Source: Meiothermus sp. (lineage in GTDB: Bacteria > Deinococcota > Deinococci > Deinococcales > Thermaceae). Taken from it: a DNA stretch of 49,015 nucleotides. Numbering within the stretch: position 1 is the first letter of the stretch; each line of letters begins with the position of its first letter. Shown here piece after piece: positions 9,122 to 15,747 of the stretch. The DNA lies in assembly GCF_025060375.1 (NCBI RefSeq), contig NZ_JANXCG010000080.1, positions 1-49,015 of the forward strand, read 5' to 3'. Below the pieces are notes generated by a model. The model saw only the letters and a program-made list of their open reading frames with translations. It was not told the origin of the DNA and made no database searches. The position numbers were made by a program, and so were the translations under genes.

Positions 9122-11101
9122 TCAGCGCCGGTAGACCAGGGTCAGCCAAAGGACCAGGTGGGCACCCAGGGCCAGCAGGGTAAGGGTCAGGCCAAGGCGC
9201 GGCTCCTGGCGCCAAAGCCACACCCCTGCGCCCAGGGTCAACAGCACCAGCACGCCCCAGCCCTGGCTGTAGGTGGGGCTTCCCGGAAAGAGGAGCTGAA
9301 TGGTGTGGCGCCAGGCGACCCCATCCTGGGCGTTTTTGGGCCGCGGTAGGAAGAAGCACAAGAGGTGGTATAAGGCCAGGAGCATGGCCAGCCCGGCCGC
9401 CCCCCAGGCCCAAAGAGGGGTGGGCCACAGGGGAAGGTCGCGCCAAACCTCGAGGAAGTTGGTGGTGAGGTTGCGCAGATGGCTCAGGCCGAGAGCAGCG
9501 GCAATGACCCGCGGGGTGGGCACAGCTTCGCGGGCCACCCCGGCCTCGCGGTAGACCTCGCTCCAGAGGTCCCCTCCAAGGCCCAGCGCCTCTCGCACGG
9601 AAGGGGCGCGGGGGGCTTGCCGGTAGGCCTGGGCCAAGGCTTCTGGGGTCCCACGCCCCAGCAGGACGTAGCTCCAAGCCGGGGCGGTTTCGTAGAGGCG
9701 ACGGGCCTCGGTGGGGTTTTCCTGGGCCAGGGCATAGGCCAGCAACCCCCGTGCAGAGTCGGTGTTGGCCAGGTTGCGTAGGGTTTCCTGAGCGGCGTTC
9801 GAGCGCAGCGTGCCCCGGGTGAGGCTCTCTTGGGCGATAAGGGCCTCGAAGCGGCCTAAAAAACCCCAGGCCAGGAAGGCCAGGATGGTGAGCCCAAACA
9901 GCAAAAGCAGCAGGGCCCGCTCTCCTATGGTGGTGTAGGCCAGCACGCTGTGGCGCAGGCGCAGCAGGGGGTGCCGCAACCAGCCCAGAAGCCACCCTCC
10001 ACTGGGGCGAACCCCTCGGAGCTGGGCAGGAAGGTAAAGCAGGCTCAGGTAGAGGACCATCAGGAGGTAAAGCCCCCCTAAAACCCCGGTGAGCTGGGCC
10101 AGGTGGGCCGAGGTCAAAGGGGGCTGCCAGCTAGCCACCTCCCGTAGGGCATCGCGATAGCGCTCGGCCAGGTCGGGGCGTCCTTGTGCCTCGAGCCAGT
10201 CGGCCTGCTCCAGGAGCACGGCCTGGGCTCCGGGGAGCTGCGGAAGGTACTTCAAAAAAAACTCTGACCAGGTCAGGCTTTTCTCCAGCCCCTCCCGTCG
10301 CGTGGCCCGAACCTGCGCCAGCCAGGGTTCCAGCCAGCGCAGCACGCCTCTTCCCCAGGCCAGTTCGGGCCGGTGGCCCCTTTGCAATAGGTCGCGCCCT
10401 ATGGCCTCGAGGTCAGCGGCGCTCAGGCTGCTGGCCTCCCGGGTGAAGTAGTACCAGTACGGCCGCTGGGCTGAGGTGGGCTCGCGGTCCTTGAAGTAGT
10501 CGCGGAGAACCGAGAGGCTTTCCCAACGGCCCTCGTAGGGTTTTCCAGCCAGGGCTGCCAGGCTCAACCGCCGCCCGTCCTCCAAGAGCACGGCAGGTTC
10601 GGGTTCGGTTTCCAGGGCCCGCACCTCGGCTGGGGGAAAGTGTTCGGCCACCACCCGGGGGGTCTGCAGGTCTATCTCCAACACCAGCGGTCCTTGGGCG
10701 ATGAAAGCCCGGGAACCCAAAACCTTGGGGCCAATCCAGGGGCCTGTAAGGGGTAGTTTCCAACTTCCCACCACCAGCCCATCCGCCCCTAGCTGGGGTG
10801 TGGGCAACGAGGCCTGGGCAACCACACGGGTCTGGGCTTCCACCCTCCGCCCCTGGAGCTCTACGCTGATTCTGAAAACCCCAGCCCTGGGCGGGGTCCA
10901 GGCTAGGGTGAACTGTTCACCCGCCGCTTCCAGCACCGCCTGGTTGCGGCCGGTGTCCGACTCTATGGTGAGGGTGTGGCGGCCCGGGGGGAAACCGGCA
11001 CCCTGAATCTCCAGGGGCTCCCCTACCCGGCCCTCTGGGGCCACCGTGAGGCTTTGGGCCAGCGCCAGCCCCCCCAAGAGAACTCCAGCTGTCCAACGCA
11101 T
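9122..11101 (-). CDS. Large membrane protein of unknown function, 659 aa
   Basis: I do not recognise the family. The N-terminus has a signal peptide (MRWTAGVLLGGLALAQ), followed by an Ig-like extracytoplasmic beta domain (about 18-95; WTPPRAGVFRISVELQGRRVEA) and a mixed region with helical, TPR-like character. Hydrophobic helices occur near residues 330-355 and 395-415, a second soluble section carries short helical repeats (about 420-550), and three further helices lie at the C-terminus. The protein could present both a periplasmic sensor part and a cytoplasmic part. TAAAAT on the minus strand with 6 nt to the ATG gives a leaderless promoter. It is divergent from the lysine operon and 23 nt from the aldolase gene. 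Confidence 0.7.
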   Translation of the reverse strand: MRWTAGVLLGGLALAQSLTVAPEGRVGEPLEIQGAGFPPGRHTLTIESDTGRNQAVLEAAGEQFTLAWTPPRAGVFRISVELQGRRVEAQTRVVAQASLPTPQLGADGLVVGSWKLPLTGPWIGPKVLGSRAFIAQGPLVLEIDLQTPRVVAEHFPPAEVRALETEPEPAVLLEDGRRLSLAALAGKPYEGRWESLSVLRDYFKDREPTSAQRPYWYYFTREASSLSAADLEAIGRDLLQRGHRPELAWGRGVLRWLEPWLAQVRATRREGLEKSLTWSEFFLKYLPQLPGAQAVLLEQADWLEAQGRPDLAERYRDALREVASWQPPLTSAHLAQLTGVLGGLYLLMVLYLSLLYLPAQLRGVRPSGGWLLGWLRHPLLRLRHSVLAYTTIGERALLLLLFGLTILAFLAWGFLGRFEALIAQESLTRGTLRSNAAQETLRNLANTDSARGLLAYALAQENPTEARRLYETAPAWSYVLLGRGTPEALAQAYRQAPRAPSVREALGLGGDLWSEVYREAGVAREAVPTPRVIAAALGLSHLRNLTTNFLEVWRDLPLWPTPLWAWGAAGLAMLLALYHLLCFFLPRPKNAQDGVAWRHTIQLLFPGSPTYSQGWGVLVLLTLGAGVWLWRQEPRLGLTLTLLALGAHLVLWLTLVYRR

Positions 11102-11132: not shown

Positions 11133-11168
11133 TTGACAGCCTCGGTATACCGATTTTACACTTGCGGT
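11133..11168 (+). promoter_or_regulatory. Promoter of the lysine operon (leaderless start of the leader peptide)
   Basis: TTGACA (11133-11138) and TACACT (11157-11162) are 18 nt apart. Six bases separate the -10 from the ATG of the leader peptide at 11169, so the leader peptide would be translated from a leaderless transcript. A perfect palindrome, GGTATACC (11144-11151), lies between the two boxes and could be an operator. Confidence 0.75.
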
Positions 11169-11207
11169 ATGCCCCTACGGGCTAAAAAACCCGGTGCCGT
11201 GGGCTAG
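11169..11207 (+). CDS. Lysine operon leader peptide (12 aa, tandem Lys codons)
   Basis: A 12-codon reading frame, MPLRAKKPGAVG, with two adjacent AAA lysine codons at 11184-11189 and a TAG stop at 11205-11207. It lies between the promoter and an attenuator hairpin upstream of hcs. Ribosome stalling at the Lys codons when charged tRNA-Lys is scarce would favour the antiterminator at 11201-11237. A leader-peptide attenuator of lysine genes has been described in Thermus thermophilus; this frame has the features expected of its counterpart. The frame is too short for ordinary gene finders. Confidence 0.8.
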   Translation: MPLRAKKPGAVG

Positions 11208-11266
11208 CGCATGCTGGTTCGCCCGCTTGCGCAGCCCGGCCCGCAGAGAAAGCGGGCGATTTTTTT
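11201..11266 (+). promoter_or_regulatory. Transcription attenuator of the lysine operon
   Basis: Terminator: GCCCGCTT (11221-11228) pairs with AAGCGGGC (11250-11257), followed by GA and seven T (11260-11266). Competing antiterminator: GGGCTAGCGC (11201-11210) pairs with GCGCAGCCC (11229-11237) with one bulged A, placing the terminator's 5' arm in its loop. The antiterminator's 5' arm contains the leader peptide stop codon, so a ribosome that finishes the leader would cover it and allow termination. A ribosome stalled at the Lys codons leaves it free. This is the expected geometry for lysine-responsive attenuation. Confidence 0.8.
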
Positions 11267-11271
11267 CGCAT

Positions 11272-12501
11272 ATGCAGACAGACCCGCGCATTGTAATCGT
11301 AGACACCACTTTCCGCGACGGCCAGCAGTCGCCGCTCCTGTTTGACACGGAGAAGTACCGCTTCACCCTAGAGGAGAAAAAACAGCTGCTGGCGGGTCTC
11401 ATCGAGCTGGGGGTGACCCATTTTGAGTTCTTCTCTCCGGTGGTGGGTGAGGCCGAGGCCGAGGATGTGCGGGAGCTAATCGCCTACGCCAAGAGCCTAA
11501 CACCCAAGCCGCTCCGCTTTTTAGGGCATTGCCGGACCAACCCGCTCGATATAGAGAAGGCCCTCGAGGTGGGTTGCAACGGCCTGAACCTGTACCTGGG
11601 GGTTTCGCCTTTGGCCCAGCGGCACAACGCGCAGAAGTCCTTGGACGAGGCGGTGGGGTTGGCTAAGGAAGTCCTTCGGCAGGTGCGGGCGGCCCATCCC
11701 AAAATGTACCTGCGTTTCAGCGCTGAGGACGCCTTCCGCACGCCTTTGGGAGACCTCTTCCGGCTTTACGACGCGGTTTATCCCTACGTGGACACGCTAG
11801 GCTTGCCCGACACGGTGGGTATCGCCGAGCCAGAGGACGTGACCCAGGTGGTTTCTGCGTTGCGTGCGCGCTACCCCAGGGCTGCGCTTGAGTGCCACTT
11901 TCACAACGACCGTGGCCTGGCCCTTGCCAACGTGCTGGCCGCGGTGCGGGCGGGGGTGCGGTATGTGGACGCCTCCATCTGGGGCCTGGCCGAGCGCTCG
12001 GGAATTCCCTCCATCACGGGGGTGCTGTTCAACCTCTCCAAGCGCTACCCGGAGCTCAAGGAGCAGTACAACCTGAGCCAGTGCTACCCCCTGAACGTGC
12101 TCATGGCCTCCATCCTGGGCACCTTGGTGCCCTACACCGAACCGGTTTCGCTCACCAACCGCACGCATACCGCTGGGGTTCACCAGAAGGCGGTTTTGAA
12201 CGAGAAAAAGGTCTACGAGGCGCACAACCTGCACGACTTTGGGGTGGATAAGAACCAGCTTCTTCTGGGTCCTCTGTCGGGCTGGCACCTGATCTACTAC
12301 TATTTGAAGGAGGTGGAGGCCTTCGAGATTACCAGGGAGCAGGCTAAGCGCATCACCCAGGAGTTCAAAAGCCGCACGGGTGAGATTGGCCGACGGAAGA
12401 AGCCCGAGGAGCTCTTGCTGGAAATCGCCCTGGCCCACGGTCTCTCCCGGCACCCCATCCCAGAGGAGGTGCCCACGGCGCGGCTGGAGAACCTGGATTG
12501 A
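11272..12501 (+). CDS. hcs: Homocitrate synthase (lysine AAA pathway)
   Basis: HMG-lyase-like TIM barrel that condenses 2-oxoglutarate with acetyl-CoA to homocitrate, the first step of lysine synthesis via alpha-aminoadipate. Metal and active-site residues: D11, R15 and D16 in VDTTFRDGQQ, and H209/H211 in CHFHNDRG. A later conserved segment is HTAGVHQKAVLN. The 409-residue protein is longer than the T. thermophilus enzyme as I recall it (about 376) and reads rather differently from it. The homocitrate assignment therefore rests on its position as first gene of the attenuated lysine operon, and 2-isopropylmalate synthase is the alternative. The ATG at 11272 lies just after the attenuator; the in-frame extension back to 11194 runs through the terminator and is not used. 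Confidence 0.82.
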   Translation: MQTDPRIVIVDTTFRDGQQSPLLFDTEKYRFTLEEKKQLLAGLIELGVTHFEFFSPVVGEAEAEDVRELIAYAKSLTPKPLRFLGHCRTNPLDIEKALEVGCNGLNLYLGVSPLAQRHNAQKSLDEAVGLAKEVLRQVRAAHPKMYLRFSAEDAFRTPLGDLFRLYDAVYPYVDTLGLPDTVGIAEPEDVTQVVSALRARYPRAALECHFHNDRGLALANVLAAVRAGVRYVDASIWGLAERSGIPSITGVLFNLSKRYPELKEQYNLSQCYPLNVLMASILGTLVPYTEPVSLTNRTHTAGVHQKAVLNEKKVYEAHNLHDFGVDKNQLLLGPLSGWHLIYYYLKEVEAFEITREQAKRITQEFKSRTGEIGRRKKPEELLLEIALAHGLSRHPIPEEVPTARLENLD

Positions 12502-12538: not shown

Positions 12539-13789
12539 ATGGGCCTGACGTTAGCTGAAAAAATCCTTTCCCAAAGGGCTGGCCGGGAGGTGCGGGCAGG
12601 CGAGCTGGTGGTGGTGGAGGTGGATCAGGTGATGGTGGTGGACTCCATCGCCGGGAGCTTTTTCAAGCGGCTCGAGCAGCTCGGGGCTACCCCGCGCTTC
12701 CCTGAGAAGGTGGCCATCGTAATTGACCACGTGGCCCCGGCGGCCAATGTGGAGGTAGCCAAAGCCCAGAAGGAGATTCGCGAGTGGGGCAACCGCCACG
12801 GCTGCCGGGTCTTCGACGTAGGGCGGGGCATCTGCCATCAGGTCTTGGTGGAGGAGGGCCTGGCGCGGCCGGGGGGCATTGTGCTGGGCTCGGACTCGCA
12901 CTCCACCACCTACGGCGGCATCGCTTGCTTTGGTACTGGGATGGGAGCCACCGACATCGCCCTGGCCGCGGCCTCGGGGCGCACCTGGCTCAGGGTGCCC
13001 GAGACGGTCAAGGTGACCTTCAAAGGGCGGCTGGCTCCCGGCACGACGGCCAAGGATGCGGCCCTGGAGATGGTGCGTGTCCTCACCGCCGACGGGGCCA
13101 CCTACATGAGCGTTGAAATCCACTTGGTGGACGGGGCCGAATCCCTCACCCGCAGCCAGCGCTTGACCTTGGCCAACCTCACGGTGGAGGCCGGGGCCAA
13201 GTGTGGGCTGGTGGTGCCCAGCGGCGAGATTCTGGAGCTCTACGAGATACCCGACTGGCTCTACCCCGACCCGGATGCCACCTACGCTAAGGAGGTCGAA
13301 ATTGACCTTGCAGCCCTCACCCCCCGGATCTCGGTGCCCTTCTACGTGGACAACGTGGAGGAGGTGGCCAGGGTTAAGGGCAAGCGGGTGGACCAGGTGT
13401 TTGTGGGCACCTGTACCAACGGGCGCCTGGACGACCTGCACGAGGTCGCGGCCATCCTCAAAGGCCGTAAGGTGGCGCCGGGGGTGCGGATGCTGGTCAT
13501 TCCGGCCTCCTCGCAGGTGCTCGAGGCTGCCGCTGCCGACGGCACCCTGCTCACCCTGCTGCAGGCTGGGGCCACCATCGGCACCCCTGGCTGTGGGCCC
13601 TGCATGGGGCGGCACCAAGGGGTGCTGGCCCCGGGCGAGGTTTGCGTGAGCACCTCCAACCGCAACTTCAGGGGGCGCATGGGGGCGGCGGATGCCGAGA
13701 TTTACCTGGCTTCGCCCAGGGTGGCTGCAGCCAGTGCGGTGGCGGGGTACATCACCACCCCGGAGGAGCTGGAGGTGGGCCGTGCCTAG
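12539..13789 (+). CDS. lysT: Homoaconitase large subunit
   Basis: Large subunit of the [4Fe-4S] hydro-lyase that isomerises homocitrate to homoisocitrate via homoaconitate. The cluster cysteines are C292 (GTCTNGR) and C352/C355 (GCGPCMG); SDSHSTTYGG at 118-127 is the aconitase-family substrate motif. The 416-residue length fits LysT/LeuC-type subunits. The gene begins 37 nt after hcs and its stop overlaps the lysU start by 8 nt, so the two subunits are translationally coupled. LeuC is the close paralogue; the lysine context decides. Confidence 0.93.
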   Translation: MGLTLAEKILSQRAGREVRAGELVVVEVDQVMVVDSIAGSFFKRLEQLGATPRFPEKVAIVIDHVAPAANVEVAKAQKEIREWGNRHGCRVFDVGRGICHQVLVEEGLARPGGIVLGSDSHSTTYGGIACFGTGMGATDIALAAASGRTWLRVPETVKVTFKGRLAPGTTAKDAALEMVRVLTADGATYMSVEIHLVDGAESLTRSQRLTLANLTVEAGAKCGLVVPSGEILELYEIPDWLYPDPDATYAKEVEIDLAALTPRISVPFYVDNVEEVARVKGKRVDQVFVGTCTNGRLDDLHEVAAILKGRKVAPGVRMLVIPASSQVLEAAAADGTLLTLLQAGATIGTPGCGPCMGRHQGVLAPGEVCVSTSNRNFRGRMGAADAEIYLASPRVAAASAVAGYITTPEELEVGRA

Positions 13790-14285
13790 GGTCTGGAAGT
13801 TTGGCGACGCCATCAACACCGACGACATCCTGCCCGGCAAGTATGCCCCCTTCATGGTGGGGGAGGACAGGTTCCACACCTACGCTTTTGCCCACCTACG
13901 GCCCGAGTTTGCCTCAGGGTTTCGCCCGGGCGACATCCTGGTCTGTGGCCGGAACACCGGGCTGGGCTCTTCCCGCGAGTACGCTCCAGAGGCCCTGCGC
14001 AAGCTGGGCCTGAGGGCCATCATTGCCAAGAGTTACGCCCGCATCTTCTACCGCAACTTGGTGAACCTGGGTATTGTGCCCTTTGAGGCGCCGGAGGTGG
14101 TAGACGCGCTGGAGGACGGCGACGAGGTGGAGCTGGATTTGGAGAGGGGCGTTTTGCGGCACGGGCCGGATACCTTCCAGCTTACCCCCCCGCCGGATTT
14201 TCTGCTGGAGGCCTTGAAAGAGGGGAGCATACTGGACTACTACCGCAAGTACGGCCGGTTTCCCGGAGAGGGCAGGGGAGGGTAG
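13782..14285 (+). CDS. lysU: Homoaconitase small subunit
   Basis: Small (swivel-domain) subunit of homoaconitase, 167 residues. The N-terminus is MPRVWKFGDAINTDDILPGK when started at the GTG at 13782, which matches the T. thermophilus LysU start as I recall it. GRNTGLGSSREYAPEAL (57-73) is the substrate-binding motif of the family. The frame is open further upstream but there it overlaps lysT in a different frame and reads as nonsense. The overlap with lysT suggests coupled synthesis of the two subunits. Confidence 0.93.
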   Translation: MPRVWKFGDAINTDDILPGKYAPFMVGEDRFHTYAFAHLRPEFASGFRPGDILVCGRNTGLGSSREYAPEALRKLGLRAIIAKSYARIFYRNLVNLGIVPFEAPEVVDALEDGDEVELDLERGVLRHGPDTFQLTPPPDFLLEALKEGSILDYYRKYGRFPGEGRGG

Positions 14286-14306
14286 ACTGGGGGGGTTGAG
14301 GTCTGT

Positions 14307-14618
14307 ATGGAAGACCTAGAGGTAATTTGCCCGGTATGCCGCGAACCCAACTTCGTCCCTCCCGAAGACCTGGAGGAGCTTACGCCCGAGGACTACCTTG
14401 AGTGCGAGTCCTGTGGGGCTTATCTGCAAATTCTCTCCACCGACCCCTTGGAGGTGGCGGTCATTGAGGACGGCGAGGAAGGGCTTTTCGTGGACTGCCC
14501 GGAATGTGGCCTGACCTTTGAGCTGGACAGCGAAGAGGAGGAAGCGGTCTGCCCGGAGTGCGGCCACCGCTTCGAGCCGGACTGGGCGGGGTTGGAGGAG
14601 GAAGAAGAGGACTACTGA
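14307..14618 (+). CDS. Acidic tandem zinc-ribbon protein in the lysine operon
   Basis: A 103-residue, highly acidic protein with four CxxC knuckles: C8/C11, C33/C36, C64/C67 and C82/C85, which make two zinc ribbons. Each ribbon resembles LysW in spacing and acidity (ECESCGAYLQILSTDPLEV compares with the LysW second knuckle). Unlike LysW, its C-terminus ends EEEEEDY rather than in the carrier Glu, so it cannot obviously serve as the same kind of covalent amino-group carrier. It lies between lysU (21-nt gap) and lysW. A role as a LysW-related scaffold or regulator is inference; I know of no assigned function. Confidence 0.75.
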   Translation: MEDLEVICPVCREPNFVPPEDLEELTPEDYLECESCGAYLQILSTDPLEVAVIEDGEEGLFVDCPECGLTFELDSEEEEAVCPECGHRFEPDWAGLEEEEEDY

Positions 14619-14639
14619 GTGGGGTTTTTGTGGGGAGGA

Positions 14640-14660
14640 GCGCCTGGGAGGCGAAATTTT
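14640..14660 (+). terminator. Short hairpin between zinc-ribbon gene and lysW
   Basis: CGCCT (14641-14645) pairs with AGGCG (14649-14653), followed by AAATTTT. The stem is only five pairs, so this may be a partial terminator, an RNA processing site, or nothing. Confidence 0.3.
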
Positions 14661-14707
14661 CCGCTGTGGATGGGCGCCAGCCCTTAAGCGAATAGGAGGA
14701 AATGGAG

Positions 14708-14872
14708 ATGACAGCCGAGTGTGTGGAGTGTGGGAGTGAGGTAGAGCTGAACGACCCTGAGCTGGGGGAGCTGGTGGTTTGCGAGACCTGTGGGGCAGAG
14801 CTTGAGGTGGTGGGTCTGGAGCCCCTCAGGCTTCAGGCGGCCCCCGAGGAGGCAGAGGACTGGGGAGAGTAG
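14708..14872 (+). CDS. lysW: Amino-group carrier protein LysW
   Basis: Small carrier protein whose C-terminal Glu is coupled to alpha-aminoadipate, protecting the amino group while LysX, LysZ, LysY and later enzymes act on it. Exactly 54 residues, with zinc-ribbon cysteines C5/C8 and C25/C28, an acidic globular surface, and the conserved C-terminus EEAEDWGE. The ATG at 14708 is chosen because AGGAGGA (14694-14700) is 7 nt upstream; the ATG at 14702 is too close. The gene is easily missed because of its length. It lies directly before lysX, its activating ligase. Confidence 0.96.
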   Translation: MTAECVECGSEVELNDPELGELVVCETCGAELEVVGLEPLRLQAAPEEAEDWGE

Positions 14873-14907
14873 CCTAGGTCTTGCTGGCTTCTCCCCGCTT
14901 TTTGCCT

Positions 14908-15747
14908 ATGTTGGCCATCCTTTACGACCGCATCCGTCCCGACGAGGAGCTGCTCTTTAGGGCTGCCGAGGGTCTGGGCATCCCTTTTAGGAAAATTTAC
15001 GCCAAGCAGTTGCCCATGAGGCTGGGGGAGCGGCCCCCAGAGCTGGAGGGTGTGACCTGTGCGGTGGAGCGGCTGGTATCGCAGAGCAAGGGCCTGGCGG
15101 TCGCGCGCTATCTGAAAAGCCTGGGGATTCCCGTGGTAAACGCGCCAGAGGTAATTGAGGTTTGTGGCGATAAGTGGGCCACGAGCTGTGCTCTGGCGGC
15201 CCACGGGGTGCCCCAGCCCCGGACGGTCTTGGCTACCGAGGCCGAGGGGGCCCTGAAGCTTGTGGAGGAGCTGGGTTACCCGGTGGTGATGAAGCCGGTG
15301 GTGGGGAGCTGGGGCCGCCTTCTGGCCAGGGTGAACGACCGCGACGCGGCCGAGGCCCTGCTGGAGCACAAGGAGGTGCTGGGGGGCTACCAGCACCAGC
15401 TCTACTACATCCAGGAGTTCGTCCGGAAGCCGGGGCGCGACATCCGGGCCTTTGTGGTGGGGGATGCCTGCATTGCGGCCATCTACCGCAGCTCCGAGCA
15501 CTGGATTACCAATACTGCCCGCGGGGGCAAGGCCTCCAACTGCCCCGTTACCCCCGAATTGGCCGATCTGGCCGTGCGGGCAGCCAAGGCTGTGGGGGGT
15601 GGGGTGGTGGCCATTGATCTATTTGAGTCCGAGCAGGGGCTTTTGGTGAACGAGGTAAACCACACCATGGAGTTCAAAAACTCCGTGCACACCACGGGGG
15701 TGGACATCCCAAGGAAAATCCTGGAGTACGCTTGGGGTCTGAGGTAG
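14908..15747 (+). CDS. lysX: LysW-alpha-aminoadipate ligase LysX
   Basis: ATP-grasp ligase that joins the amino group of alpha-aminoadipate to the C-terminal Glu of LysW. The 279-residue protein aligns by eye along its whole length with T. thermophilus Lys[14 protein letters not shown] at the start, [41 protein letters not shown] (substrate region) and [20 protein letters not shown] at the C-terminus. The ATG at 14908 is used; the longer frame from 14881 adds residues not seen in the family. It starts 35 nt after lysW. Confidence 0.96.

What the first reader, a model, noticed from the sequence alone, without database searches (positions are those of the whole stretch)
11133..11272. Complete lysine attenuator with a leaderless 12-aa leader peptide
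Seen: TTGACA-18-TACACT, then six bases, then MPLRAKKPGAVG with AAA-AAA, then mutually exclusive hairpins (antiterminator 11201-11210/11229-11237; terminator 11221-11228/11250-11257 plus seven T), then hcs. Known: lysine genes in T. thermophilus have been reported to use leader-peptide attenuation. Notable here is that the leader peptide itself appears to be leaderless, so a ribosome loads at the RNA 5' end as soon as it emerges, and that the stop codon sits in the antiterminator arm.
Basis: partly seen in the sequence, partly recalled or inferred. Interest (0 to 1): 0.7.

Follow-up and report, generated by a model that had tools for sequence, protein, structure and literature searches.

The report
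Lysine attenuator with leaderless leader peptide
Ahead of a heat-loving bacterium's lysine genes lies a short RNA switch predicted to stop transcription unless ribosomes stall for lack of lysine; it is the Meiothermus version of a switch already reported in Thermus, with an unreported likely repressor site inside its promoter.

Summary
TTGACA-18-TACACT, six bases, the ORF MPLRAKKPGAVG with AAA-AAA, alternative hairpins, seven T and then hcs are all there. The leader recurs in all 22 Meiothermus-group genomes searched and in the eight Thermus leaders examined; AAAAAA is invariant, always codons 6-7. Folding with a ribosome parked at each codon gives P(terminator touching the U-tract) 0.00 with the A site at either Lys codon and 0.99 at the stop; 6 of 400 shuffles do this. 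It is therefore a leader-peptide transcription attenuator, a kind already reported for T. thermophilus hcs (my memory; paper not held). Leaderless leader peptides are known in Actinobacteria. So: a new member of a known kind. Strict leaderlessness is predicted only here and in M. luteus; relatives probably carry a 2-5 nt stub. It recurs on the ilvB and leuC promoters, which also have SD-less leader peptides, and upstream of a GntR/FCD regulator gene, suggesting a second, repressor layer. Thermus keeps the attenuator over a very different hcs (33% identity, versus 85% for lysT).

The parts
11133..11138 (+). -35 hexamer TTGACA
   Evidence: TTGACA starts 36-41 nt before the leader ATG in all 30 leaders
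11143..11152 (.). palindrome CGGTATACCG in the promoter spacer; candidate operator of a GntR/FCD regulator
   Evidence: same motif in the ilvB and leuC promoters and upstream of the gntR gene across the Meiothermus group
11157..11162 (+). -10 hexamer TACACT
11169..11207 (+). leader peptide ORF MPLRAKKPGAVG, predicted leaderless; Lys codons 11184-11189, stop TAG 11205-11207
11200..11238 (+). antiterminator hairpin, arms 11200-11211 and 11228-11238 (A11206 bulged); the 5' arm holds the stop codon
   Evidence: equivalent stem kept in the Meiothermus alignment
11219..11259 (+). lineage-specific terminator, arms 11219-11227(8) and (11250)11251-11259, abutting U7; formed when the ribosome is at the stop codon
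11239..11257 (+). family-conserved terminator hairpin, arms 11239-11244 and 11252-11257
   Evidence: compensatory changes in relatives
11260..11266 (+). U-tract (seven T)
11272..12501 (+). hcs, homocitrate synthase, the first regulated gene; no Shine-Dalgarno sequence in front
12539..15747 (+). downstream lysine genes: homoaconitase large (12539) and small (13692) subunits, zinc-ribbon protein (14307), LysW (14702-14872), LysX (14881)

Best explanation
This is a leader-peptide (ribosome-mediated) transcription attenuator of the lysine operon in a Meiothermus species close to M. luteus. RNA polymerase starts at or within a nucleotide of the A of ATG 11169, so a ribosome loads on the 5' AUG without a Shine-Dalgarno sequence (inferred from promoter spacing). 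With charged tRNA-Lys the ribosome runs to the stop codon and covers the antiterminator 5' arm; the hairpin abutting seven U then forms and transcription stops before hcs. When tRNA-Lys is short the ribosome stalls at AAA-AAA and leaves 11200-11211 free to pair with 11228-11238. That traps the terminator 5' arm in its loop, and polymerase reads on into hcs and the lys genes. Sequence, conservation and folding are shown; translation, lysine response and the start site are inferred. A GntR/FCD-type regulator probably also acts on the promoter through CGGTATACCG.
For: The leader is present upstream of the lysine hcs in all 22 Meiothermus-group genomes of a family-wide search and in the eight Thermus leaders examined. 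AAAAAA is invariant, at codons 6-7 in 30 of 30; peptides are 12-16 codons. AAG outnumbers AAA 52 to 23 in eight window genes, so AAA is not simply the default codon. The conserved terminator stem has compensatory changes at two pairs and 95.7% of cells paired, against 27-47% when slid. Folding by ribosome position: P(terminator touching the U-tract) is 0.00 with the A site at AAA1 or AAA2, 0.85 one codon later and 0.99 at the stop (60 C); this holds for footprints of +9 to +14 nt, and 6 of 400 shuffles do as well. M. luteus and seven of eight Thermus leaders show the same contrast. The upstream gene is divergent, so the terminator serves only this transcript. No riboswitch or T-box reaches the Rfam threshold. 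In the same genome ilvB has a leader peptide rich in Leu, Val and Ile and leuC has an SD-less leader ORF followed by a terminator-like hairpin.
Against: The antiterminator stem shows no compensatory change. The 6-bp conserved hairpin coexists with the antiterminator in the predicted fold, so some termination may persist during starvation. In several relatives (L032, L033, L038, L040; weakly L035, L036) equilibrium folding predicts little or no switch. The model ignores kinetics and rests on an assumed ribosome footprint; in the window it fails at +16 or more. No transcript 5' end or expression data.
Confidence: 0.9

Rival explanations
1. The attenuator is real but the leader peptide is SD-less with a 1-5 nt 5' stub, not strictly leaderless; the ribosome still enters near the 5' end.
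For: In 28 of 30 leaders the -10 to ATG gap is 8-11 nt, in ilvB it is 10 nt and in leuC 7 nt; start-site choice can vary by a few nt.
Against: In the window and M. luteus the gap is exactly 6 nt, which places the usual start on the A of ATG.
Confidence: 0.2
2. The leader ORF is not translated; the conserved RNA is sensed by a ligand or a protein, or is a simple constitutive terminator.
For: The hairpins are among the most conserved parts, and several relatives show no predicted ribosome-dependent switch.
Against: Start codon, frame and Lys-Lys at codons 6-7 are kept in 30 leaders while the other residues change; no Rfam riboswitch or T-box match; the switch point falls on the Lys codons.
Confidence: 0.06
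3. The main control is repression at the promoter by a GntR/FCD regulator bound to CGGTATACCG, and the attenuator is secondary.
For: The motif lies between -35 and -10 here and in the ilvB and leuC promoters, and upstream of the gntR gene; gene and motif share the same distribution, Meiothermus group yes, Thermus almost none.
Against: Nine of the 22 Meiothermus-group hcs promoters lack an exact GGTATACC in this position, while every one keeps the attenuator; no binding data.
Confidence: 0.15

Closest known systems
Thermus thermophilus hcs (lysine) leader-peptide attenuator (Tsubouchi et al. 2005, J Biol Chem; from memory, paper not held)
   Same: Homologous by position and sequence: TTGACA promoter, KK at codons 6-7, GCCGGGGG antiterminator arm, CCGGCCC terminator arm, lys operon
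   Different: Shorter peptide (12 versus 14 aa), exact leaderless spacing, a lineage-specific terminator stem, an operator-like palindrome in the promoter spacer, and a different hcs gene downstream (33% identity)
Leaderless leader peptides of Streptomyces lividans (LeuL, TrpL, IlvL, ThrL; PMC8079986)
   Same: Short peptide holding the regulating amino acid, transcribed without a 5' UTR, several followed by a terminator
   Different: Unrelated sequence, other amino acids, Actinobacteria
Polycysteine leaderless ORF attenuators of mycobacteria (Canestrari et al. 2020, cited in PMC9031893 and PMC13236596)
   Same: Leaderless short ORF whose translation speed senses an amino acid
   Different: Cysteine; described in the review as regulating translation of downstream genes; no shared sequence
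E. coli trp/his-type attenuators (general knowledge)
   Same: Alternative hairpins chosen by ribosome position
   Different: Those leaders have a 5' UTR and a Shine-Dalgarno sequence
Lysine riboswitch (L-box)
   Same: Controls lysine genes, often by early termination (general knowledge)
   Different: No Rfam match here

Membership tests
Leader-peptide (ribosome-mediated) transcription attenuator | Short ORF with tandem codons for the operon's end product | tested here: met
   AAA-AAA at codons 6-7 in 30 of 30 leaders before lysine genes
Leader-peptide (ribosome-mediated) transcription attenuator | Intrinsic terminator between leader ORF and first gene | tested here: met
   Hairpin plus T7, compensatory changes in relatives
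Leader-peptide (ribosome-mediated) transcription attenuator | Alternative antiterminator whose formation depends on ribosome position | tested here: met
   Predicted switch at the Lys codons in the window, M. luteus and most Thermus leaders; computed only, and not predicted in several relatives
Leader-peptide (ribosome-mediated) transcription attenuator | Expression responds to tRNA-Lys charging through translation of the leader | not testable with these tools
   Needs reporter fusions
Thermus/Meiothermus hcs lysine attenuator | Homologous leader at the head of the hcs-lysTU operon | tested here: met
   Alignment A1, 30 sequences, 74% mean column identity; lysT follows hcs in both genera
Leaderless mRNA | Start codon at the RNA 5' end | tested here: inconclusive
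   6-nt gap from -10 to ATG; the 5' end was not mapped
Leaderless mRNA | No Shine-Dalgarno sequence | tested here: met
   No room for one: ATG is 6 nt after the -10 hexamer
Lysine riboswitch | Match to the Rfam lysine riboswitch model | tested here: not met
   No Rfam match at gathering threshold, and none to that family at E up to 1
GntR/FCD regulon | Shared palindromic site at target promoters and at the regulator's own gene | tested here: met
GntR/FCD regulon | Protein binds the site | not testable with these tools
   Needs a gel shift or ChIP

The most novel reading that the evidence does not exclude
In the Meiothermus group the lysine, ilvBNC-leuA and leuC operons form one regulon with two-layer control: an autoregulated GntR/FCD repressor, not found described in the papers searched, binding TGGTATACCA inside the promoter spacer, on top of leaderless or near-leaderless leader-peptide attenuators. 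Under the conserved lysine attenuator the homocitrate synthase gene itself was exchanged between Thermus and Meiothermus.
Probability: 0.55. Interest if true: 0.5.

Novelty: new member of a known kind. Interest (0 to 1): 0.35.

Why it matters
It extends the Thermus lysine attenuator to the Meiothermus group with an alignment of 30 leaders, and indicates that amino-acid attenuators in this family commonly use SD-less, near-leaderless leader peptides. It offers a compact test bed for whether 5'-end loading of ribosomes is fast enough for attenuation in a thermophile. The palindrome gives a candidate regulator for lysine and branched-chain synthesis in these bacteria, and the hcs exchange shows a regulatory leader outliving the gene it controls.

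Tried and rejected
Rfam search for a riboswitch or T-box: nothing at threshold (the best sub-threshold match was Trp_leader, E 0.16). A first, lenient definition of the terminator (any hairpin near the T-run) gave no clear switch because bulged and detached hairpins were mixed; it was replaced by a hairpin abutting the U-tract, a choice made after seeing the first result. Covariation for the antiterminator: none found. The 2005 JBC paper on T. thermophilus could not be read nor found described through text searches. The other two exact TTGACA-TANNNT-ATG sites in the genome head ordinary long ORFs, not leader peptides. No paper was found on this operator or regulator.

Full report
What is there. 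The promoter, leader ORF, hairpins, T-run and hcs start are at the stated coordinates. The window lies in a Meiothermus-type genome of 2.39 Mb; its hcs is 93% identical to that of M. luteus. The downstream genes are homoaconitase large and small subunits, a zinc-ribbon protein, LysW (56 aa ending EDWGE) and LysX, so this is the alpha-aminoadipate lysine operon. The gene upstream (9122-11101) runs the other way, so the terminator sits inside this operon's own leader.

Conservation. I took the region upstream of hcs from all 22 Meiothermus-group genomes returned by a search of 50 Thermaceae genomes, plus eight Thermus loci. All 30 have TTGACA starting 36-41 nt before an ATG, AAAAAA as codons 6 and 7, a stop after 12-16 codons, a GC-rich antiterminator arm and a terminator. 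Typical peptides are MILSAKKSSAGGLV (Meiothermus) and MLARAKKLGRRGVG (Thermus). Residues around KK change freely, while start, frame and KK do not. Two Deinococcales MAGs with the same hcs have other short ORFs with Lys codons 5-6 nt behind a TACACT box (read by eye).

How the switch works here. I folded the RNA left free by a ribosome with its A site at each codon (+13 nt footprint, 37 and 60 C) and asked how often a hairpin touches the U-tract (at most 1 nt gap). For the window it is at most 0.02 with the A site anywhere from ATG to AAA2, 0.33 (37 C) or 0.85 (60 C) one codon later, and 0.99 at the stop. The result is stable for footprints +9 to +14. Shuffling the sequence between the Lys codons and the terminator 3' arm reproduces such a switch in 6 of 400 cases. 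M. luteus and seven of eight Thermus leaders give the same contrast; many other Meiothermus leaders do so for a stall at the first Lys codon only, and some (L032, L033, L038, L040) show none. These are equilibrium predictions and ignore folding during transcription; the criterion was tightened after a first, looser one gave no clear answer.

Which hairpins. It is not the family's terminator. The conserved one pairs 11239-11244 with 11252-11257 and carries compensatory changes in relatives. In the window the antiterminator and the 6-bp hairpin can coexist, leaving GA between hairpin and T-run, so antitermination may be partial. The antiterminator arms are 95% paired across Meiothermus but without compensatory changes, so its support is conservation and the switch computation only.

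Leaderlessness. Six nucleotides between TACACT and ATG put the expected start on the A of ATG in the window and in M. luteus; the other 28 leaders have 8-11 nt, predicting a stub of about 2-5 nt. None leaves room for a well-placed Shine-Dalgarno sequence. Leaderless mRNAs are put at up to 60% of genes in Deinococcus deserti (PMC9031893), and leaderless leader peptides are described in Streptomyces lividans (PMC8079986) and mycobacteria (Canestrari et al., cited in PMC9031893). The feature is therefore expected, not new. The T. thermophilus lysine attenuator (Tsubouchi et al. 2005) is known to me from memory; the paper is not held.

CGGTATACCG (11143-11152) lies between -35 and -10. TTGACA followed within 8 nt by GGTATACC occurs 1-3 times in each of the 22 Meiothermus-group genomes and in none of the 28 other Thermaceae; the reversed control gives none. 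The hits are the hcs promoter and the ilvB promoter, with one further site in G020 that has no leader ORF. In the window's genome the ilvB leader reads MLFAYLSLAVVGLVIIRPAGDTV. A wider pattern adds a third class of site seen in all 22 genomes; in the six loci I read, it is the leuC promoter, again with a short SD-less ORF (MSQAVQPHRLAPR here) and a terminator-like hairpin. The motif also lies 18-37 nt upstream of a GntR/FCD regulator gene in 19 of 21 Meiothermus-group copies checked; that gene is in 20 of 22 Meiothermus-group genomes and one Thermus. I read this as an autoregulated repressor sharing its operator with three biosynthetic promoters. Binding is untested, and nine of 22 hcs promoters lack an exact site.

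Gene exchange. Between the window and Thermus, hcs is 33% identical while lysT, next to it, is 82-85% identical and lysU 74%. The Deinococcales MAGs carry the Meiothermus type (74-75%). The attenuator has stayed while the first gene differs; which genus exchanged the gene was not tested with a rooted tree.

Verdict.

Noticed in passing
window 11143-11152; L053 (ilvB promoter); L119 (leuC promoter); L059 (gntR): Palindrome (T/C)GGTATACC(A/G) shared by the lys, ilvB and leuC promoters and by the region upstream of a GntR/FCD gene across the Meiothermus group; candidate operator of an undescribed amino-acid regulator.
   Followed up: partly
window 11272-12501 versus L041, L043 (Thermus): Meiothermus and Thermus hcs are only about 33% identical although lysT beside it is 82-85% identical and the attenuator is homologous: the gene under the attenuator was exchanged.
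   Followed up: partly
L053:6878-7060 (-): The ilvBNC-leuA-cimA operon has its own attenuator with leader peptide MLFAYLSLAVVGLVIIRPAGDTV, no Shine-Dalgarno sequence, 10 nt after the -10 box.
   Followed up: partly
L119:1383-1530 (-): leuC has a 13-aa leader ORF MSQAVQPHRLAPR 7 nt after TATACT, then a terminator-like hairpin; similar ORFs in relatives carry Leu codons, often CTA.
   Followed up: partly
window 11260-11274: hcs in the window and M. luteus starts a few nt after the terminator T-run with no Shine-Dalgarno sequence, whereas several relatives have GGAG-type sites there.
   Followed up: no
window 14307-14618: A 103-aa acidic double zinc-ribbon protein, weakly similar to LysW, lies between the homoaconitase small subunit and the true LysW (14702-14872).
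   Followed up: no
L011 and L012 upstream of hcs: Two Deinococcales MAGs have different short ORFs (MQNYGKHWHGGSS; MYKLVTRAIQNTDKRKAGGSS) 5-6 nt behind a TACACT box before hcs, possibly independent or strongly diverged lysine attenuators.
   Followed up: no
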